A stretch of DNA of 64,000 nucleotides from Eubacteriaceae bacterium (GTDB lineage Bacteria; Bacillota; Clostridia; Lachnospirales; Lachnospiraceae): contig CAJTDQ010000007.1 in the NCBI GenBank assembly GCA_910574895.1, forward strand, positions 62,001 to 126,000, read 5' to 3'. Below, piece by piece: positions 51,483 to 58,281 of the stretch (position 1 is its first letter; each line of letters begins with the position of its first letter). The notes under the pieces were generated by a model. It worked only from the letters and a program-made list of their open reading frames with translations. It did no database searches and was not told the origin of the DNA. The position numbers and the translations under genes were made by a program.

Positions 51483-52160
51483 TTATTTTGCGCCATACTG
51501 CTCATAATATTTATCAATTGCAGTCTTTATCTCGTCGTTTATTACAACCTTTCCATTACAATCTTTGTTATAAAGATGTTCTACAACATCTGCCATGGAC
51601 ACGATGGCAGATGCATCAAATCCGTATTTTTCTTTTATTTCTTCTAATGCACTCTTATCACTGTCGCGGCCCTTTTCCATTCTGTTAAGAGAAACCATAA
51701 GACCTAAAATCTCTACATTTCCCTGTGCCTTTATAATAGGAAAAGTTTCTTCAATAGATTTACCGGATGTGGTAACATCTTCTATAATTACAATCTTATC
51801 TCCATCTTTGATTGGACTACCAAGAAGAATTCCTGCATCACCATGGTCTTTTGCTTCTTTTCTGTTAGAACAGTACTTGATTTCTTTACCATATAATTCG
51901 CTGAATGCGATACATGTAGCAACCCCGATAGGAATTCCTTTATATGCCGGTCCGAATAATACATCAAAGTCCTCTCCGTAATGTTCGTGAATCGCTTTTG
52001 CATAATACTGTCCCAGTTTATGTAATTGTGTTCCTGTGACATATAATCCTGCATTCATAAAGAAAGGAGACTTACGTCCACTCTTTAATGTAAATTCTCC
52101 AAACTTTAATACGTCACTTTCTACCATAAATTCTATAAATTCCTGCTTGTATGCTTCCAT
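51483..52160 (-). CDS. pyrE: Orotate phosphoribosyltransferase
   Basis: Attaches PRPP ribose to orotate to give OMP. The 225 aa include LKSGRKSPFFMNAGLY, VLFGPAYKGIPIG and the PRPP loop VIIEDVTTSGKS. It lies about 6.2 kb from pyrD, although the two are usually adjacent; a mobile island and a GT2 gene lie between. Its upstream region ends with the integrase remnant. Confidence 0.96.
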   Translation of the reverse strand: MEAYKQEFIEFMVESDVLKFGEFTLKSGRKSPFFMNAGLYVTGTQLHKLGQYYAKAIHEHYGEDFDVLFGPAYKGIPIGVATCIAFSELYGKEIKYCSNRKEAKDHGDAGILLGSPIKDGDKIVIIEDVTTSGKSIEETFPIIKAQGNVEILGLMVSLNRMEKGRDSDKSALEEIKEKYGFDASAIVSMADVVEHLYNKDCNGKVVINDEIKTAIDKYYEQYGAK

Positions 52161-52219
52161 TTTTTTAATCTCCTTTATAAACAGGCATTTCTGCCCTTAT
52201 TTTTTATGAAATAGTGCTA

Positions 52220-52333
52220 CTACACCACTTTCTCCACCATCTTCATTGCTTCAAACAATGTATCATCTGTCATATGACAATACAAATCCATTGTCATCTT
52301 CATATTGTGCTTCCTTCCTGATGTGAAATAGTC
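52220..52333 (-). pseudogene. Tyrosine-integrase 3' remnant
   Basis: A short open segment on the minus strand encodes SGRKHNMKMTMDLYCHMTDD followed by TLFEAM and a TAG. This matches the C-terminal end of ICE-type tyrosine integrases, which carry a V-T-M-x-x-Y-x-H-x-T-x-D-T-L pattern, including the catalytic Tyr. The rest of the integrase is missing. It lies 60 bp from the pyrE start and beside an excisionase gene. Confidence 0.6.
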
Positions 52334-52475
52334 AGGATAGAATCATCAAATATCCTTTTTATATTATCACGAAAAGCCGACTTTCACAATCAGTTAAACC
52401 TATCTATTTCACATTCTTTTTACTTTATTCCCTTATTTCGTCACAGGACTTACATGGTGTTTCACAAAAACCAGT

Positions 52476-52667
52476 TTATCTAATTTGATTTAATAGCCAC
52501 TCATCTAATTTTTCTTTGTGTGCATACAAACGATTTCCAATACAAATGGTAAAGTTGTTCTTCGGATTGCTTAAAAGTTCCCGTGCGTTTGTCTGACCTA
52601 TTCCCCAATAACTGCACATCTCCTTTACAGATAAAAGTGCATTTTTATTTTTCTTAAATTCCATCAT
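52476..52667 (-). CDS. xis: Excisionase-like DNA-binding protein
   Basis: A 63-aa basic protein with a MerR-like winged helix, resembling the Tn916-type excisionase: LLSVKEMCSYWGIGQTNARE, a hydrophobic ICIGNRLYAHKEK, and a C-terminal LDEWLLNQIR. These proteins steer integrase towards excision. The usual partner integrase survives only as a 3' stub, so this is a relic of a mobile element. The first AT-rich section of the island starts here. Confidence 0.75.
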   Translation of the reverse strand: MMEFKKNKNALLSVKEMCSYWGIGQTNARELLSNPKNNFTICIGNRLYAHKEKLDEWLLNQIR

Positions 52668-52740
52668 TTAAACTCTCCCCTAAGTATAAATTATTTCTAT
52701 CCAAGAATTCTTTATCTCTCGGATTTAGAAATATTATAAT

Positions 52741-52866
52741 TCATTTGTATTTGTAATAAGAGTTCATTACACTCCTTTTGGGGGAATGCTTCTCCTCAAC
52801 GCCAAATTTATTTACAAATTCCATCTGCTCCTCATAGTTCTCTAAAGGAATTGCGAGATACGCGTT
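52741..52866 (-). pseudogene. Gene fragment of unknown mobile-element protein
   Basis: An open segment of 41 codons without a start gives AYLAIPLENYEEQMEFVNKF and continues GVEEKHSPKRSVMNSYYKYK to a stop. It looks like the 3' end of a former protein gene, cut at 52867. I cannot assign a family. Confidence 0.4.
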
Positions 52867-53000
52867 TTATGGCCAAAACGCCTTTTCTCGTTAGGGATTA
52901 TTCCCTAAAACTCTGAAACGCAAAAAAGTTATAACTTTCCAACGACTTTTTGCATTTTTACTATAACTTTTACTAACAAGTGGGTCGGGATTTACTAACA
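52862..53000. repeat. Cluster of inverted and direct repeats
   Basis: Several small structures lie together: GCGTTTT/AAAACGC (52862-52881), TTAGGGA/TCCCTAA (52891-52908), AAAAGTTATA (52924-52933) with TATAACTTTT (52962-52971), and direct repeats TTTACTAACA at 52969-52978 and 52991-53000. Such clusters occur at the integrase-binding or transfer sites of integrative elements; no function can be proved here. Confidence 0.45.
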
Positions 53001-53036
53001 CTTTTTTATTCTGCATTTTTCTGTCTCTATTATTAA

Positions 53037-53870
53037 TTTAATTGGGATAATTTGCCTTATGAGAAGGTGGGCGATAATGAACCCGTGTGTATAGCGGATG
53101 AAGTGCCGTTTAATATACCTGATAGTTGGGAATGGGCAAGACTTGGAACAATTTTCGCACATAATACAGGTAAAGCATTAAATCAAACCAATAAGAATGG
53201 AAAAATGCTTGATTATATTACCACATCGAATCTATATTGGAATAGATTTGAGTTAGATAATATAAAGCAGATGTATTTTAAGCAGTCTGAACTTGAAAAA
53301 TGTACTGCCACCAAAGGTGATTTATTAGTGTGTGAGGGCGGTGATATCGGACGTGCTGCTATCTGGAATTTTAAGTATGACATTAGAATTCAAAATCATA
53401 TTCATAAGCTTCGTGCCTATACAAAGATATGTACAGAGTATTATTACTATTTATTTTTTTTGTATAAATGTGCAGGTTGGATAGGTGGAAAAGGAATAGG
53501 AATTAAAGGATTATCTGCAAATGCATTACATAATTTATTATTTCCACTACCGCCTGTAAATGAACAGTATCGTATTGTAGAGAAAATCAAAGGGATTAAA
53601 CCATTTACAGACAAATATGAAATTAACAACATAAAACTTCACACTTTGAACAATGGATTTCCTGAACGCCTTAAAAAATCAATTTTACAGGAAGCTGTTA
53701 TGGGAAAACTTGTACCCCAAGATGAAAATGACGAGCCTGCTTCGGTATTGTTGGAACGTATAAGAGCCGAAAAACAAGCGCTTATTAGGGCAGGAATAAT
53801 CAAAAAAAATAAGCACGAATCTATTATTTTTAGAAGGGATAATTCTCATTATCGGAAGTTAATTCTTTAA
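53037..53870 (+). pseudogene. hsdS: Truncated type I restriction specificity (HsdS) cassette
   Basis: About 277 codons, open from 53037 just after a stop, without a good start (only a TTG at 53052). It has PFNIPDSWEWARLGTIF, then one target-recognition domain (TRD), LPPVNEQYRIVEKI and the conserved helix KKSILQEAVMGKLVPQ. It ends in HESIIFRRDNSHYRK and a premature stop where the second TRD should begin. GGGATAATT motifs bound the segment at each end (53044 and 53836). No hsdM or hsdR accompanies it and it is opposite to its neighbours. Likely a silent or broken TRD cassette. Confidence 0.8.
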
Positions 53871-54036
53871 AAATAATGAGTTTATTTCAACCCATTTTCT
53901 CCGCTCATCATGCTAATTTGATATCTTATTGTATCATGATATGACATATTTTACCACATAAAAGAAAATAAGCATTCATACACTTACATTCGTATAAGTG
54001 TACAAATGCCACATTTTTATCTTTGAAATATATTTA

Positions 54037-54723
54037 TTATAATATCGGATTTTCTTTAAAATATAGATTTAAATTTGTATGTCTTTCCAGCGAATGAAGC
54101 TCTTCCTTAATATATCTCCATGACGAAGGAAATGAATCCGGAACTCCATTCACCACAACTTTATTTAGGAACTCTACAAACAATATTTCTTTATCTAAGA
54201 ACATATCATAAAAATCATCTGCATAATCCCTCTTTTCTTCCTCAGACAAATTCAACTTGTCATATAATGCATGCTCAAGATTGCTTGATAGATAGTAACA
54301 TTTATACGGAATATTTCTTATAGTAGAAACTTTTAATAAATAATCCATAATTGTTCTCTTTTTAGAATTTCTCTCTTTAACTTTTTCTATATTATTACAA
54401 CTAATATTTGTAGTTGAATATACAAATTTCGAACTACTTCCCTCTATAATATTGTCATCTGGAATATATGCCCCATCCATATCAAATATATGCACTATTT
54501 GCCATACGTCACTTACCTTAAGTTTTTGATCCTTCAAATACGCATTTATTAGATTGAATATTTCATTTTCTACATTATTTATATTTATTTTATCATTTGT
54601 AGTAATATCCCCATCAGTAACTTCATAATGTATATTTTTATTTCTGTATATTTTCTTGAATATCTTTTCCAAAGTTCTCTTGTCAGTTTGCCCTTCTACA
54701 ATAAAAATAACAACCTTCTTCAT
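54037..54723 (-). CDS. TOPRIM-like nuclease partner of AAA ATPase
   Basis: A 228-aa cytosolic protein starting KKVVIFIVEGQTDKRTLEKI. E10 and the pair D81-x-D83 in HIFDMDGAYIPDD have the layout of a TOPRIM fold, as found in OLD-family nucleases and in the AriB partner of PARIS systems. It starts 14 bases after the stop of the AAA ATPase gene and has an AGGAGG site. Together they resemble two-gene anti-phage modules such as PARIS (AriA/AriB) or AbiL, but I cannot assign a known type. It has no resemblance to the RloB start. It appears intact. Confidence 0.65.
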   Translation of the reverse strand: MKKVVIFIVEGQTDKRTLEKIFKKIYRNKNIHYEVTDGDITTNDKININNVENEIFNLINAYLKDQKLKVSDVWQIVHIFDMDGAYIPDDNIIEGSSSKFVYSTTNISCNNIEKVKERNSKKRTIMDYLLKVSTIRNIPYKCYYLSSNLEHALYDKLNLSEEEKRDYADDFYDMFLDKEILFVEFLNKVVVNGVPDSFPSSWRYIKEELHSLERHTNLNLYFKENPIL

Positions 54724-54737
54724 GAGTGATACCCCTC

Positions 54738-56213
54738 CTAATTATCATTGTCATTAATATTTTGCATAAATTCCTCCAATGCAGTTAAATTAGTTTTTTT
54801 TGTATTTGGAGAACCAGCTCTTCTAAATGCATACCCCATATCTTGAAGGTCTACATCTTCGTACAATTTTTCCTCTTGACCACCTAGAATAAGTGTTCTG
54901 ATATAGAAATCACGTCTATTGTGAGTTTTTTCTATTCCCTTTAGCGAAATATATCTATTTGCAGGATTTATTGTTGAACAAATTATATTTTTCTTATCTA
55001 ATTTTTCCATTATTCTCAAATTATGCGAAGTGAATATTAATTGTCCTTTAGCCTCTTTAGATAATACTCCTATCATCTCTCCCAACAAATATTCAAATAT
55101 TCCTGCATCCAATTCATCTACTACCAAGCAGACACCTGAATTATTGTATAAGGAAATCAAATAACTTAACAATGAAATAATTCTCTTGATTCCGTCTGAT
55201 TCGTATTTTACAAGAAACCGTTTTCCATCTCTATTCGAATACACTTCAGCCTGAATCATTACTATTCCTTCTTTATTTTTTTCTTCAGCTATTTTAACTA
55301 TTTCTATTTCAAGATTAGGTACTATTGCTTTTAGCGCAATATTTATTGCCTTTTCTATATCTTTCATCTTTTCAAATATGAAATCTGGAAATTCACCCCT
55401 ACCATTAATAAACAGAGGAATGCACCCCTGCATTATTTCATTTTCAGATTCAAGCTGAACATTCATCGGAATTATTGTATTAGAGTAATTCGCACCCAAT
55501 TGATTAACCTTAACCACTTGAAATCTAACTCTTGCAAAATATAATAAAGCCTTTGCTATTGAAGAAAATATTTTCTCTTCTTCATTCTGTTGTAATGAAT
55601 TATAGTGTTTCTCTATATATTCATTAAAAAATAATGATATATTTTTTTGTGCACACATAACAGCAATATTTTGAATTGATTTAAAAAATCTTATTTCCAA
55701 AATATTCTTTATAGAATCAGATTCAATACTTGCTTCTTTATTTTCAAGAATAGAATCTTCACTATAGAATGGATTAGAGAATTTAATATTTCTTTCTGAT
55801 TTCCAAGAAGATCCTTTCTGCCAGTATGTTAATTCCTCTGATACTATTTGAATTTGCTTATTATCCTTATCCGGTTTCAAAACAGTAACATACTTAACTT
55901 TATATTGTTTTCCATTATTCTCAATAAAAAAAATATTTGTTACCTTTGCAGATTTTTTTTCGCTAAACATCCCTGCATATTCATTATAATCTGCTGATGT
56001 CCCACTCATAATCTTTTGTAAGATATCCAATGCTTCTATTATTGCTGTTTTCCCAGAGCCATTTTGTCCATATATTCCGTTAATATCTGATTTTTTTATT
56101 ATTCCTCGCACATTGGCATTAGAATAGTTAAAATATTTAATATCTCCATACTTAACATTCTTAAAATTCTCAATTTTTGATTCAATTAACCTTACAATAC
56201 TTGCTTGCTTCAT
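54738..56213 (-). CDS. AAA/ABC-type ATPase of putative defence module
   Basis: A 491-aa ATPase of the AAA15/OLD-like class. The Walker A loop GQNGSGKT (49-56) is preceded by DINGIYG. A signature-like ESDGIKR (338-344), a Walker B VCLVVDELDAG (361-371, with D366 and E367) and TSHN (395-398) as the switch region follow. The 150-residue insertion between them is unlike RecF or SMC proteins. It forms an operon with the TOPRIM gene downstream. The DNA is A/T-rich, and neighbours are mobile-element relics, both usual for defence islands. Confidence 0.7.
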   Translation of the reverse strand: MKQASIVRLIESKIENFKNVKYGDIKYFNYSNANVRGIIKKSDINGIYGQNGSGKTAIIEALDILQKIMSGTSADYNEYAGMFSEKKSAKVTNIFFIENNGKQYKVKYVTVLKPDKDNKQIQIVSEELTYWQKGSSWKSERNIKFSNPFYSEDSILENKEASIESDSIKNILEIRFFKSIQNIAVMCAQKNISLFFNEYIEKHYNSLQQNEEEKIFSSIAKALLYFARVRFQVVKVNQLGANYSNTIIPMNVQLESENEIMQGCIPLFINGRGEFPDFIFEKMKDIEKAINIALKAIVPNLEIEIVKIAEEKNKEGIVMIQAEVYSNRDGKRFLVKYESDGIKRIISLLSYLISLYNNSGVCLVVDELDAGIFEYLLGEMIGVLSKEAKGQLIFTSHNLRIMEKLDKKNIICSTINPANRYISLKGIEKTHNRRDFYIRTLILGGQEEKLYEDVDLQDMGYAFRRAGSPNTKKTNLTALEEFMQNINDNDN

Positions 56214-56590
56214 TTCATCATCCCTTTACTTTTTTCAGATTTTTTATCGTTTTTATCACTATAATATATACCATCTGTCCCTTAATTATATATCATTTCC
56301 GATAAAATATCCAGTTTATTTTAAAATTTTGTATTTTATTTTTTTAACTCTACATTTCAGAAATCTCTTGCCTAAATCTAGTCTATTTTTATTTTGTTTC
56401 TACTCTATATTGACTTCGCCATCAAACTCCCCACTCTTTTTATTTTTTCAATATGAGATGAACATCCCAACAACAATAACACACAACATATTATCATAAT
56501 TTATAGGTCATTCTCATCATATCACTTTTTAAAACCAGGTAATTATTTAATCTCCTTGCAATTTTGTGCCTAGTTCATTTAGTGTAAAAT
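56214..56590. other. Intergenic upstream of AAA gene
   Basis: No gene is seen. This is the likely promoter region of the AAA-TOPRIM pair, with many A/T tracts, and no clear hexamer pair. The IS200-related sequence starts at about 56570. Confidence 0.4.
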
Positions 56591-57097
56591 TGGGAATTAA
56601 TAGTGCATTCATACCCCGTCAAACGGGTGGTTTGTTCCCCCCTATAATAGGCAGTTACCTACCAGCACCTAAAAACACTAGCTTTCACTTTGTTCAAGTC
56701 TTAAAGCCCTTGACTCGTCTCCGACCTTAAAATGGTATTTGTCTTACCGCTCACCCTTAAAAGAGTCCTCGTATTCCTTTGCTCTTAATTTATCCATTGC
56801 AATATCATTCTTTTCCTGTTCTTGAATATACTTTCTTATTATTGCCTCATTCAATCCTACTGTACTTACATAATATCCCTCTGCCCAGAAGTGCCTGTTT
56901 CCATACTTATACTTTAAGTTTGCGTGCTTATCGAATATCATAAGTGCACTTTTTCCTTTGAGATATCCCATAAACTGTGATACACTAATTTTCGGTGGAA
57001 TGCTCACTAGCATATGGACATAATCATCCATTAAATGTCCTTCCAGCATTTCCACTCCTTTGTATCTGCATAGTTGTTTCAATATATCCCATATACT
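56570..57097 (-). mobile_element. IS200/IS605-family remnant
   Basis: The 3' part of an IS200-type element: the truncated TnpA sequence (see pseudogene) and a downstream region with the hairpin CCCGT/ACGGG at 56617-56629 and a T-rich stretch, as seen at IS200-type right ends. The left end and transposase N-terminus are missing, so it is immobile. Confidence 0.65.
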
Positions 57098-57302
57098 CTC
57101 TTTGTATACTTGCTCGATGTTATTAATAAATTTATCTGTTATCTCTGCTTCTCTAAATAACGGCAGGTATTTTTCAAAAGCATTGCTTACTTTTCTGAAC
57201 ATTGTAACCTTAATACCATCCCCAAATTCTTCGAAAAGTGGCTCTGACAAGCCATATTCTGCGCTCCTATTATATAAACTTGGTTTTCCAGTTCCCCAAT
57301 CT
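56744..57302 (-). pseudogene. Chimera of RecG-like regulator tail and IS200 TnpA
   Basis: An ORF from a TTG at 57250, which extends open to 57302. The first part, with DWGTGKPSLYNRSAEYGLSE and PLFEEFGDGIKV, matches the C-terminal end of RecG-like ATP-binding regulators. From about codon 52 it becomes IS200 TnpA with KGVEMLEGHLM, FMGYLKGKSALMIFDKHANL and the catalytic Tyr (Y141, in RKYIQEQE). The first His of the HUH motif is replaced by Tyr (DDYVHML, residues 75-81; family DHVHML), and the N-terminus of TnpA is lost. Two gene fragments were joined by insertion or deletion. Not functional. Confidence 0.75.
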
Positions 57303-57343
57303 AAAAAAGTATAGCAAGAATCTAATTCTCACTATACTTTTTT
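57303..57343 (-). terminator. Terminator of the GT2 gene
   Basis: AAAAAAGTATAG (57303-57314) pairs with CTATACTTTTTT (57332-57343). It lies just after the GT2 stop and marks the edge of the mobile island. Confidence 0.8.
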
Positions 57344-57345
57344 AA

Positions 57346-58281
57346 CTAATTATTTTTATTTGTCTCAGCCACAATATAATGTGGACGTTTTTTTACTTCT
57401 ACATAAGTCTTCGCCAGATACTGCCCTATAATTCCCATACAGAATAACTGCACTCCGCCAATAAATGTAATAATACACGCTAAAGACGGCCAGCCTTCGA
57501 CCGGGTCTCCCCAGATAAACTTCCTAACCATGATAAATATAATGGCTATAAAAGAAATAAATGTAAAAAACAATCCGATTAATGATGCGATCTGAAGTGG
57601 TGCCTGAGAAAAATTAAATATTCCATCTAGTGAATATTTAAACAACTTCCAAAAATTCCATTTGGTCTCTCCTGCTGCCCTTTCTACATTTTCAAAAGGT
57701 AGCCATTTTGTCTTGAAACCTATCCACCCAAAAATACCTTTGGAAAATCTGTTCTGTTCTCCGATTTCTACAATAGCATCTACCATCTCCCGTTTCATCA
57801 ACCGGAAGTCTCTCGCTCCATCCACGATATCTGCATCTGAAATTTTATTAATCAACTTATAAAATCTTCTGGCAAAAAAAGAGCGTATCTTTGGTTCTCC
57901 CTGCCTGGACACTCTTCTGGTAGCAACGCTGTCATACTCTCCACTTTCCAGATAAGACATCATTTCAGGTAATAATGACGGCGGATCCTGCATATCTGCA
58001 TCCATAACTGCCACATAATCACCTGATGCATGACAAAATCCAGCATACATCGCTGCCTCTTTTCCAAAATTTCTGGAAAAAGAATAATAGACAACTCGCT
58101 CATCCTGTTCTGCCATCTCTTTTAAGATTTTTAACGTATCATCTTTGGAACCATCATCAACAAAGAGTAGTTCAAATGAATGCTGGTTCATCTGACTGGT
58201 TACCTTTTTTAATTCTTCATATAATATCCCCAAAACTTCCTGTTCATTATAGCAAGGGATAATTAGTGTAATTTTTTCCAT
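57346..58281 (-). CDS. Family 2 glycosyltransferase, polyprenyl-sugar type
   Basis: Membrane enzyme transferring sugar from a nucleotide sugar to undecaprenyl phosphate (GtrB-like), feeding wall or surface polysaccharide decoration. The 311 aa start EKITLIIPCYNEQEVLG, contain the DxD motif in VAVMDADMQDPP, RRVSRQGEPKIRS, and two C-terminal transmembrane helices (about 230-290). It fits with the DUF2079 gene at the right edge, which may act in surface glycans. A terminator separates it from pyrD. Confidence 0.9.
   Translation of the reverse strand: MEKITLIIPCYNEQEVLGILYEELKKVTSQMNQHSFELLFVDDGSKDDTLKILKEMAEQDERVVYYSFSRNFGKEAAMYAGFCHASGDYVAVMDADMQDPPSLLPEMMSYLESGEYDSVATRRVSRQGEPKIRSFFARRFYKLINKISDADIVDGARDFRLMKREMVDAIVEIGEQNRFSKGIFGWIGFKTKWLPFENVERAAGETKWNFWKLFKYSLDGIFNFSQAPLQIASLIGLFFTFISFIAIIFIMVRKFIWGDPVEGWPSLACIITFIGGVQLFCMGIIGQYLAKTYVEVKKRPHYIVAETNKNN

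What the first reader, a model, noticed from the sequence alone, without database searches (positions are those of the whole stretch)
54037..56213. AAA ATPase + TOPRIM pair: candidate two-gene defence system of unassigned type
Two adjacent, intact-looking genes, 14 bp apart, encode an OLD/AAA15-type ATPase (Walker A 49-56, Walker B 361-371) and a 228-aa protein with a TOPRIM acidic layout (E10, D81-x-D83). That combination is used by PARIS, AbiL and OLD-like immunity. The second protein does not show the RloB start and is shorter than typical AriB as I remember it, so it could be a new type. The setting, a decayed mobile island with an hsdS cassette, supports a defence role.
Basis: partly seen in the sequence, partly recalled or inferred. 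Interest (0 to 1): 0.72.

Follow-up and report, generated by a model that had tools for sequence, protein, structure and literature searches.

The report
Unnamed ATPase–TOPRIM two-gene phage-defence module
Two neighbouring genes in a gut-type bacterium make an ATPase and a likely nucleic-acid-cutting enzyme that nearly always travel together, sometimes inside phage genomes, and look like an unnamed cousin of known bacterial anti-phage suicide systems.

Summary
Genes 54738-56213 (ABC-type ATPase, "A", 491 aa) and 54037-54723 ("T", 228 aa) are intact and 14 bp apart. T is a TOPRIM protein by invariant acidic residues (E10, D81, D83 in 27 of 27 aligned homologues), predicted topology and weak profile matches, but it belongs to no Pfam or NCBIfam family and hits PADLOC and PHROGs only weakly. 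The pair is a conserved module: of 392 genomes of the order, 40 have T and 39 of those have A; 32 have both intact and adjacent. T-partner ATPases form one clade (100/100), next to the RloB-partner (AbiL) ATPases and away from PARIS-type partners. Relatives lie beside phage tail genes (L002, L040), near terminase and primase genes (L044), in a Clostridioides phage record and on plasmids. T is broken beside an intact A in 6 loci; the reverse was seen once (L040). Best reading: an abortive-infection or toxin-antitoxin-like module, a third ATPase-TOPRIM lineage next to AbiL and PARIS. It fails AbiL (no RloB) and PARIS (no DUF4435) membership. Function is untested.

The parts
54738..56213 (-). Gene A: 491-aa ABC/OLD-type ATPase (AAA_21/AAA_15), clade next to AbiLi-type ATPases; first gene of the pair
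54037..54723 (-). Gene T: 228-aa TOPRIM protein of an unnamed family, predicted nuclease effector
54724..54737 (-). 14-bp gap between A stop and T start; -17 to +30 bp over 32 loci, starts chosen by script
53971..54010 (-). Terminator-like hairpin (18 pairs, then TATTTTCTTT) just after T; fits one A-T transcription unit
   Evidence: 5 terminator-like sites in the stretch, 0.5 expected
53052..53870 (+). Orphan hsdS gene with a single specificity domain, not part of the module
52476..52667 (-). Excisionase-like ORF (HTH_17 and Tn916-Xis, both below cut-off), likely scrap of a mobile element, not part of the module
52220..52333 (-). Possible integrase C-terminal scrap (by eye; no Pfam match), not part of the module
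56744..57250 (-). IS200/IS605 Y1 transposase flanking the island

Best explanation
A and T are a two-gene abortive-infection or toxin-antitoxin-like anti-phage module. Shown here: conserved pairing, divergence in step, complete ABC-ATPase motifs, TOPRIM active-site residues and predicted topology, carriage on phages and plasmids. Suggested only: T decays more often than A. Inferred: A dimers bind T and hold it inactive; a phage-made signal changes the nucleotide state or shape of A; T is released, dimerises and cuts nucleic acid with metal ions, most likely RNA such as tRNA, as AriB does; translation stops and phage spread is blocked.
For: T homologues in 40 of 392 genomes of the order, 39 of these also with A at E<=1e-40. 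32 of those 40 genomes have both genes intact and adjacent (list counted). E10, D81, D83 invariant in 27. T model: pLDDT 85.6, pTM 0.84, order b-a-b-a-b...a-b. Profile comparison lays T's N-terminal core on RloB (probability 75%), DUF4276 (58%) and DUF4435 (32%). A has the ABC motifs; T-partner ATPases are one clade next to AbiL ATPases. Relatives lie beside tail genes (L002; L040), near terminase small subunit and primase (L044), near an anti-repressor in a Clostridioides phage record (L037), and on plasmids. T broken with intact A in 6 loci (G385:C3, G385:C79, G342, G233, L055, L130), the reverse in 1 (L040): p=0.005 by gene length, 0.06 at even odds. Literature: AriB is a TOPRIM tRNase (PMC12409363, abstract and sections 3e, 3f); AAA-neutralised TOPRIM toxins were validated in E. 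coli (PMC10440598, sections 6 and 11); F. nucleatum AbiLii is toxic in E. coli (PMC3985639, passages).
Against: No functional data for this family. Foldseek found 0 PDB matches with E<=0.001; chains of the AriA-AriB and PARIS complexes (305-306 aa, presumably AriB) come only at ranks 7 and 9 with E 0.11-0.15 and TM about 0.2, among unrelated folds. TOPRIM profile scores are below the cut-off. The ATPase model is poor (pLDDT 64). L040 has an intact T frame with only the last 53 positions of A left, against strict toxicity of free T. The bias in decay is weak and has no control. In PARIS, deleting ariA was non-toxic (PMC9122126, passages); lactococcal AbiLii was not toxic in E. coli, and F. nucleatum AbiLi did not neutralise its AbiLii (PMC3985639, passages). 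A NetFlax AAA pair with another toxin gave no phage protection in E. coli (PMC10440598, section 11). The RNA target is guesswork.
Confidence: 0.65

Rival explanations
1. A and T are simply a divergent AbiL system: AbiLi plus an AbiLii that has drifted beyond recognition.
For: A's best PADLOC model is AbiLi (4e-28; 27 of 27 A homologues match it). Tree: next to RloB-partner ATPases, 97/95. T's best profile match of the three tried is RloB; an RloB-like viral model is rank 7 for T.
Against: 0 of 27 T proteins match AbiLii at E<=0.01, while 4 of 4 RloB proteins tested do. RloB and AbiLii searches of this genome found nothing. The T profile matched no ORF of the fetched RloB loci at E<=1. The two ATPase clades sit on long branches (2.04 and 1.49).
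Confidence: 0.15
2. A plain addiction (toxin-antitoxin) module that keeps mobile elements in place, with no phage-specific trigger.
For: Carriage on plasmids and phages, T broken more often than A, published AAA-neutralised TOPRIM toxins (PMC10440598).
Against: A is large with complete ATPase motifs, which suggests sensing; A without recognisable T persists (G238, G304, L129, L049); an intact T without A exists in L040.
Confidence: 0.2
3. A DNA repair or housekeeping ATPase-nuclease pair (RecF/Rad50-like) with no defence role.
For: Fold hits of the weak A model are mostly Rad50 and SMC heads; the archaeal OLD protein Cran1 has a cell-cycle role (PMC12796447, passages).
Against: Patchy presence (40 of 392 genomes), mobile-element settings, low GC against the host, insertion at a site that is bare in 6 of 12 genus mates fetched.
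Confidence: 0.06

Closest known systems
AbiL (AbiLi ATPase + AbiLii RloB-type TOPRIM)
   Same: Two-gene ATPase then TOPRIM order; ATPase clades adjacent in the tree; both second proteins are short
   Different: T is not RloB and has no PADLOC AbiLii match; A scores 96 bits on AbiLi against 262-290 for four RloB partners
PARIS (AriA + AriB, OLD class 4)
   Same: ATPase and TOPRIM on separate adjacent genes; E and DxD acidic layout
   Different: T lacks DUF4435 (no hit in this genome); 228 aa against about 300 for most DUF4435 proteins fetched; ATPases fall in a different part of the tree (3 DUF4435 partners only)
NetFlax AAA(D29):TOPRIM_OLD(D60) of S. agalactiae 2603V/R
   Same: AAA ATPase neutralising a TOPRIM_OLD toxin, validated in E. 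coli (PMC10440598, section 11)
OLD/GajA, Septu PtuA, retron I-B ATPase-TOPRIM
   Same: Same ABC-ATPase superfamily; TOPRIM domain in OLD, GajA and I-B (recalled)
   Different: Fused domains or another effector (recalled); only weaker profile matches of A

Membership tests
AbiL | AbiLi-type ATPase | tested here: inconclusive
   Best model, but 96 bits against 262-290 in four RloB partners; adjacent clade, not inside
AbiL | AbiLii / RloB-domain second protein | tested here: not met
   0 of 27 T match AbiLii at E<=0.01; AbiLii and RloB searches of the own genome found nothing
PARIS | DUF4435 (AriB) second protein | tested here: not met
   No DUF4435 hit in own genome; no AriB match of T in PADLOC; hhalign 32% over 61 columns
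PARIS | AAA_15/AAA_21 ATPase encoded next door | tested here: met
   AAA_21 49.9 bits (cut-off 27), AAA_15 35.2 (cut-off 32.1)
TOPRIM superfamily | Glu at end of strand 1 and DxD at end of strand 3 in a b-a-b-a-b-a-b core | tested here: met
   Invariant E10, D81, D83; predicted topology
TOPRIM superfamily | Curated profile score or significant fold match | tested here: inconclusive
   PF01751 20.1 bits against 23.1 cut-off; 7 of 27 members at E<=0.01; no PDB match at E<=0.001
OLD classes 1-3 | ATPase and TOPRIM fused in one protein | tested here: not met
   Separate genes in the window and in the 32 loci with both
Toxin-antitoxin / abortive infection | T toxic alone and neutralised by A; phage protection | not testable with these tools
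   Only indirect: T broken with A intact in 6 loci, the reverse in 1

The most novel reading that the evidence does not exclude
A third lineage of two-gene ATPase-TOPRIM immunity, separate from AbiL and PARIS, spread through Clostridia and some Bacilli and carried by phages as a cargo pair, at least twice in the tail region, with its own TOPRIM RNase, target and phage trigger. The ATPase clade may swap effectors: one viral-contig copy (L049) has no T and a different gene downstream.
Probability: 0.5. Interest if true: 0.65.

Novelty: new variant of a known kind. Interest (0 to 1): 0.5.

Why it matters
ATPase-TOPRIM pairs are a growing class of bacterial immunity in which a sensor ATPase controls a nuclease that can stop translation. 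A lineage found in about one in ten genomes of this bacterial order (40 of 392), with a second protein that Pfam and the 2023 PADLOC models do not recognise, is a gap in current defence catalogues and gives a fresh test of how the ATPase restrains and fires the TOPRIM enzyme.

Tried and rejected
Sequence searches of the PDB with T or its profile gave only chance-like matches. Foldseek of T gave no significant PDB hit; the best viral model is an uncharacterised 460-aa protein (A0A8S5REI5, E 1.4e-3, probability 0.99) and an RloB-like protein is rank 7. NCBIfam gave T members only scattered single hits to unrelated families. The A model was too poor to use beyond the ABC/Rad50 head. The hsdS neighbour as proof of a restriction island was rejected. 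A promoter for A could not be claimed: 24 sites found against 20.7 expected. The gene after A in L049 looked GNAT-like to me by eye, but Pfam gave no match at E<=0.05; the label 'GNAT' in the tree is only that guess. Repeats around the island showed no clear attachment site.

A stronger claim was withdrawn on recheck: I had counted 8 loci with broken T and intact A and none of the reverse (p-values). One search showed that A in L043 is itself frameshifted (both damaged), that the T scrap in L129 is not significant (E about 0.03; nothing by profile), and that L040 has an intact T frame with a truncated A. The count is now 6 against 1, and confidence in the best explanation went from 0.7 to 0.65. 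Other sorting: both damaged G102, L056, L043; contig ends L017, L031, L054, G182, G290, G056; G382 not counted because its T break falls at contig ends. In one search, rows L008 and L022 (broken T) and L017, L031 (contig ends) were missing from one or both alignments. In the tree, RloB and DUF4276 partners were those that matched the A profile (E<=1e-3, 350 aa or more), which favours the nearer ones; the three DUF4435 partners were picked by adjacency; two rows labelled T (L008, L022) have a broken T; the root is a midpoint. No control for decay was run on AbiL or PARIS loci.

Literature searches behind the novelty statement. Apart from NetFlax, I saw nothing in their listings that describes this family, but I opened only six papers (PMC10440598, PMC12409363, PMC10568477, PMC9122126, PMC12796447, PMC3985639), in part. 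DefenseFinder models were not available, and the NetFlax D60 sequence could not be compared.

Full report
Observation. The two ORFs are present as described: A at 54738-56213 and T at 54037-54723, both on the minus strand, 14 bp apart. A has Walker A (49-56), an ABC-signature-like ESDGI (338-342), Walker B/D-loop (361-371) and the H-loop histidine H397, nearly or fully invariant in 27 homologues (motif names recalled). T has invariant E10, G11, D14, D39, D81, D83 and G84, and further invariant residues in its C-terminal half (K122, Y140, N148, H151, W202, S211, R214, N217 among them) in 27 rows. A terminator-like hairpin follows T.

What T is. Pfam Toprim gives 20.1 bits against a cut-off of 23.1. 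NCBIfam gives nothing for T. PADLOC's best hit is PDC-M38B at 8e-4 over the N-terminal 86 residues, and PHROGs' best is 1e-3 to a family of unknown function. Across 27 homologues, 7 hit Pfam Toprim at E<=0.01 and none hits AbiLii or AriB in PADLOC at that limit. An AlphaFold2 model from 10 sequences has mean pLDDT 85.6 and pTM 0.84, with strand 4-9, helix 12-25, strand 30-35, helix 51-65, strand 73-81, helix 112-130, strand 138-145. That is the TOPRIM order as I recall it, with E10 after the first strand and D81/D83 at the end of the third. Foldseek against PDB had no significant match; chains of the AriA-AriB complex (8v46) and the PARIS complex (8ux9) are ranks 7 and 9, both weak and among unrelated folds. 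Against viral models the top row is an uncharacterised protein (E 1.4e-3) and an RloB-like protein is rank 7 with probability 0.77. Profile comparison on sets fetched here laid T's N-terminal part on RloB (75%, 74 columns), DUF4276 (58%, 39 columns) and DUF4435 (32%, 61 columns). The best reading is a TOPRIM protein of its own family.

Conserved pair. In 392 genomes of the order, T was found in 40 and A (E<=1e-40) in 41. Thirty-nine have both, one has a T fragment at a contig edge only (G182), and two have A only (G238, G304). Of the 40 T genomes, 32 have both genes intact and adjacent. The other 8 have T broken or split (G385:C3, G342, G233, G382), both partial (G102), or contig ends (G056, G290, G182). 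The gap runs from -17 to +30 bp in 32 loci (starts chosen by script). A and T diverge in step (r=0.92, 25 rows). In a draw of 398 genomes of the phylum 7 had T, counting this one, so the family is concentrated near this order. Three plasmids (Ruminococcus albus, Lysinibacillus, Paenibacillus) and one Clostridioides phage record carry the pair.

Place among known systems. RloB rang in 34 of 246 genomes, DUF4435 in 9 of 246 and DUF4276 in 9 of 146. A maximum-likelihood tree of 69 ATPases puts the 36 rows labelled T partners, plus L043 and L049, in one clade with 100/100 support. The clade next to it is that of 22 RloB partners (100/99), the two joined at 97/95, apart from three DUF4435 partners and six DUF4276 partners (one long-branch row, L125, is placed weakly; midpoint root). 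Four RloB-partner ATPases score 262-290 bits on PADLOC AbiLi and their RloB proteins 44-106 bits on AbiLii; A scores 96 bits and T none. AbiL and PARIS membership both fail on the second protein.

Setting. The pair lies in a 5.2-kb insertion between pyrE and a glycosyltransferase gene. I fetched this stretch from 12 of the 21 other genus genomes with a pyrE match. In 6 of the 12, pyrE is within about 100 bp of that gene or of pyrD; in the other six there are other genes, or no pyrD within the stretch or before the contig end. A and T have 28.5% and 27.2% GC against 35.4% for the window. Beside them are an orphan hsdS, an excisionase-like ORF, a possible integrase scrap and a Y1 transposase. 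The nearest relative, L002 (65-68% identical; Lachnoclostridium sp. UBA7097), lies between a 1375-aa ORF and phage tail genes (Dit and minor tail protein). In the viral contig L040 the T gene again follows tail genes. L044 lies after primase and terminase small subunit genes. This fits phage-borne defence cargo.

Decay. T is broken by a stop, deletion or truncation while A stays whole in six loci: G385:C3, G385:C79, G342, G233, L055 and L130. In Paenibacillus sp. 37 (L130) flanks are 85-95% identical to those of P. amylolyticus (L036), but T after about residue 57 is gone. The reverse was seen once: L040, a 4.6-kb viral contig, has an intact T frame behind only the last 53 positions of A. L043, L056 and G102 are damaged in both genes. 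Six against one gives p=0.005 by gene length and 0.06 at even odds; within the order sample alone it is four against none (0.01 and 0.06). This leans towards T being costly without A, but it is weak, indirect and lacks a control.

Mechanism. By analogy, AriB is a two-metal TOPRIM tRNase (PMC12409363, abstract and sections 3e and 3f read) that AriA holds until a phage trigger (recalled). NetFlax reports AAA ATPases that neutralise TOPRIM toxins from C. algidicarnis and S. agalactiae (PMC10440598, sections 6 and 11 read). F. nucleatum AbiLii is toxic in E. coli, though its AbiLi did not neutralise it, and lactococcal AbiLii was not toxic there (PMC3985639, passages). Against a strict antitoxin role, ariA deletion was non-toxic in PARIS (PMC9122126, passages). 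I favour a restrained TOPRIM nuclease released on infection (0.65 for the abortive-infection/TA-like class); the nucleic-acid target and the trigger are open.

Novelty. New variant of a known kind: an ATPase-TOPRIM pair with an unnamed TOPRIM family and a distinct ATPase clade. The main threat to novelty is NetFlax D60, which could be the same family.

Noticed in passing
L049:5001-7175: A viral contig carries an ATPase of this clade with no recognisable T; a roughly 200-aa ORF with no Pfam match follows it, a possible swapped effector.
   Followed up: partly
window 52160-57346: The stretch upstream of pyrE is a variable site in this genus: bare in 6 of 12 relatives fetched, with other genes or no pyrD within reach in the other six.
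   Followed up: partly
window 53052-53870: Orphan hsdS gene with a single specificity domain and no other HsdS-like match in the genome.
   Followed up: partly
L130 (Paenibacillus sp. 37 plasmid pART37) 5278-5448: T lost after about 57 residues with an intact ATPase and 85-95% identical flanks, compared with the P. amylolyticus plasmid.
   Followed up: yes
L040:2303-3377: Viral contig with an intact T frame behind a 53-position stub of A, directly after phage tail genes; a natural T-without-A case or an assembly join.
   Followed up: partly
L038:5930-7252: A second AAA-type ATPase ORF (by eye) lies just downstream of the A-T pair in a viral contig.
   Followed up: no
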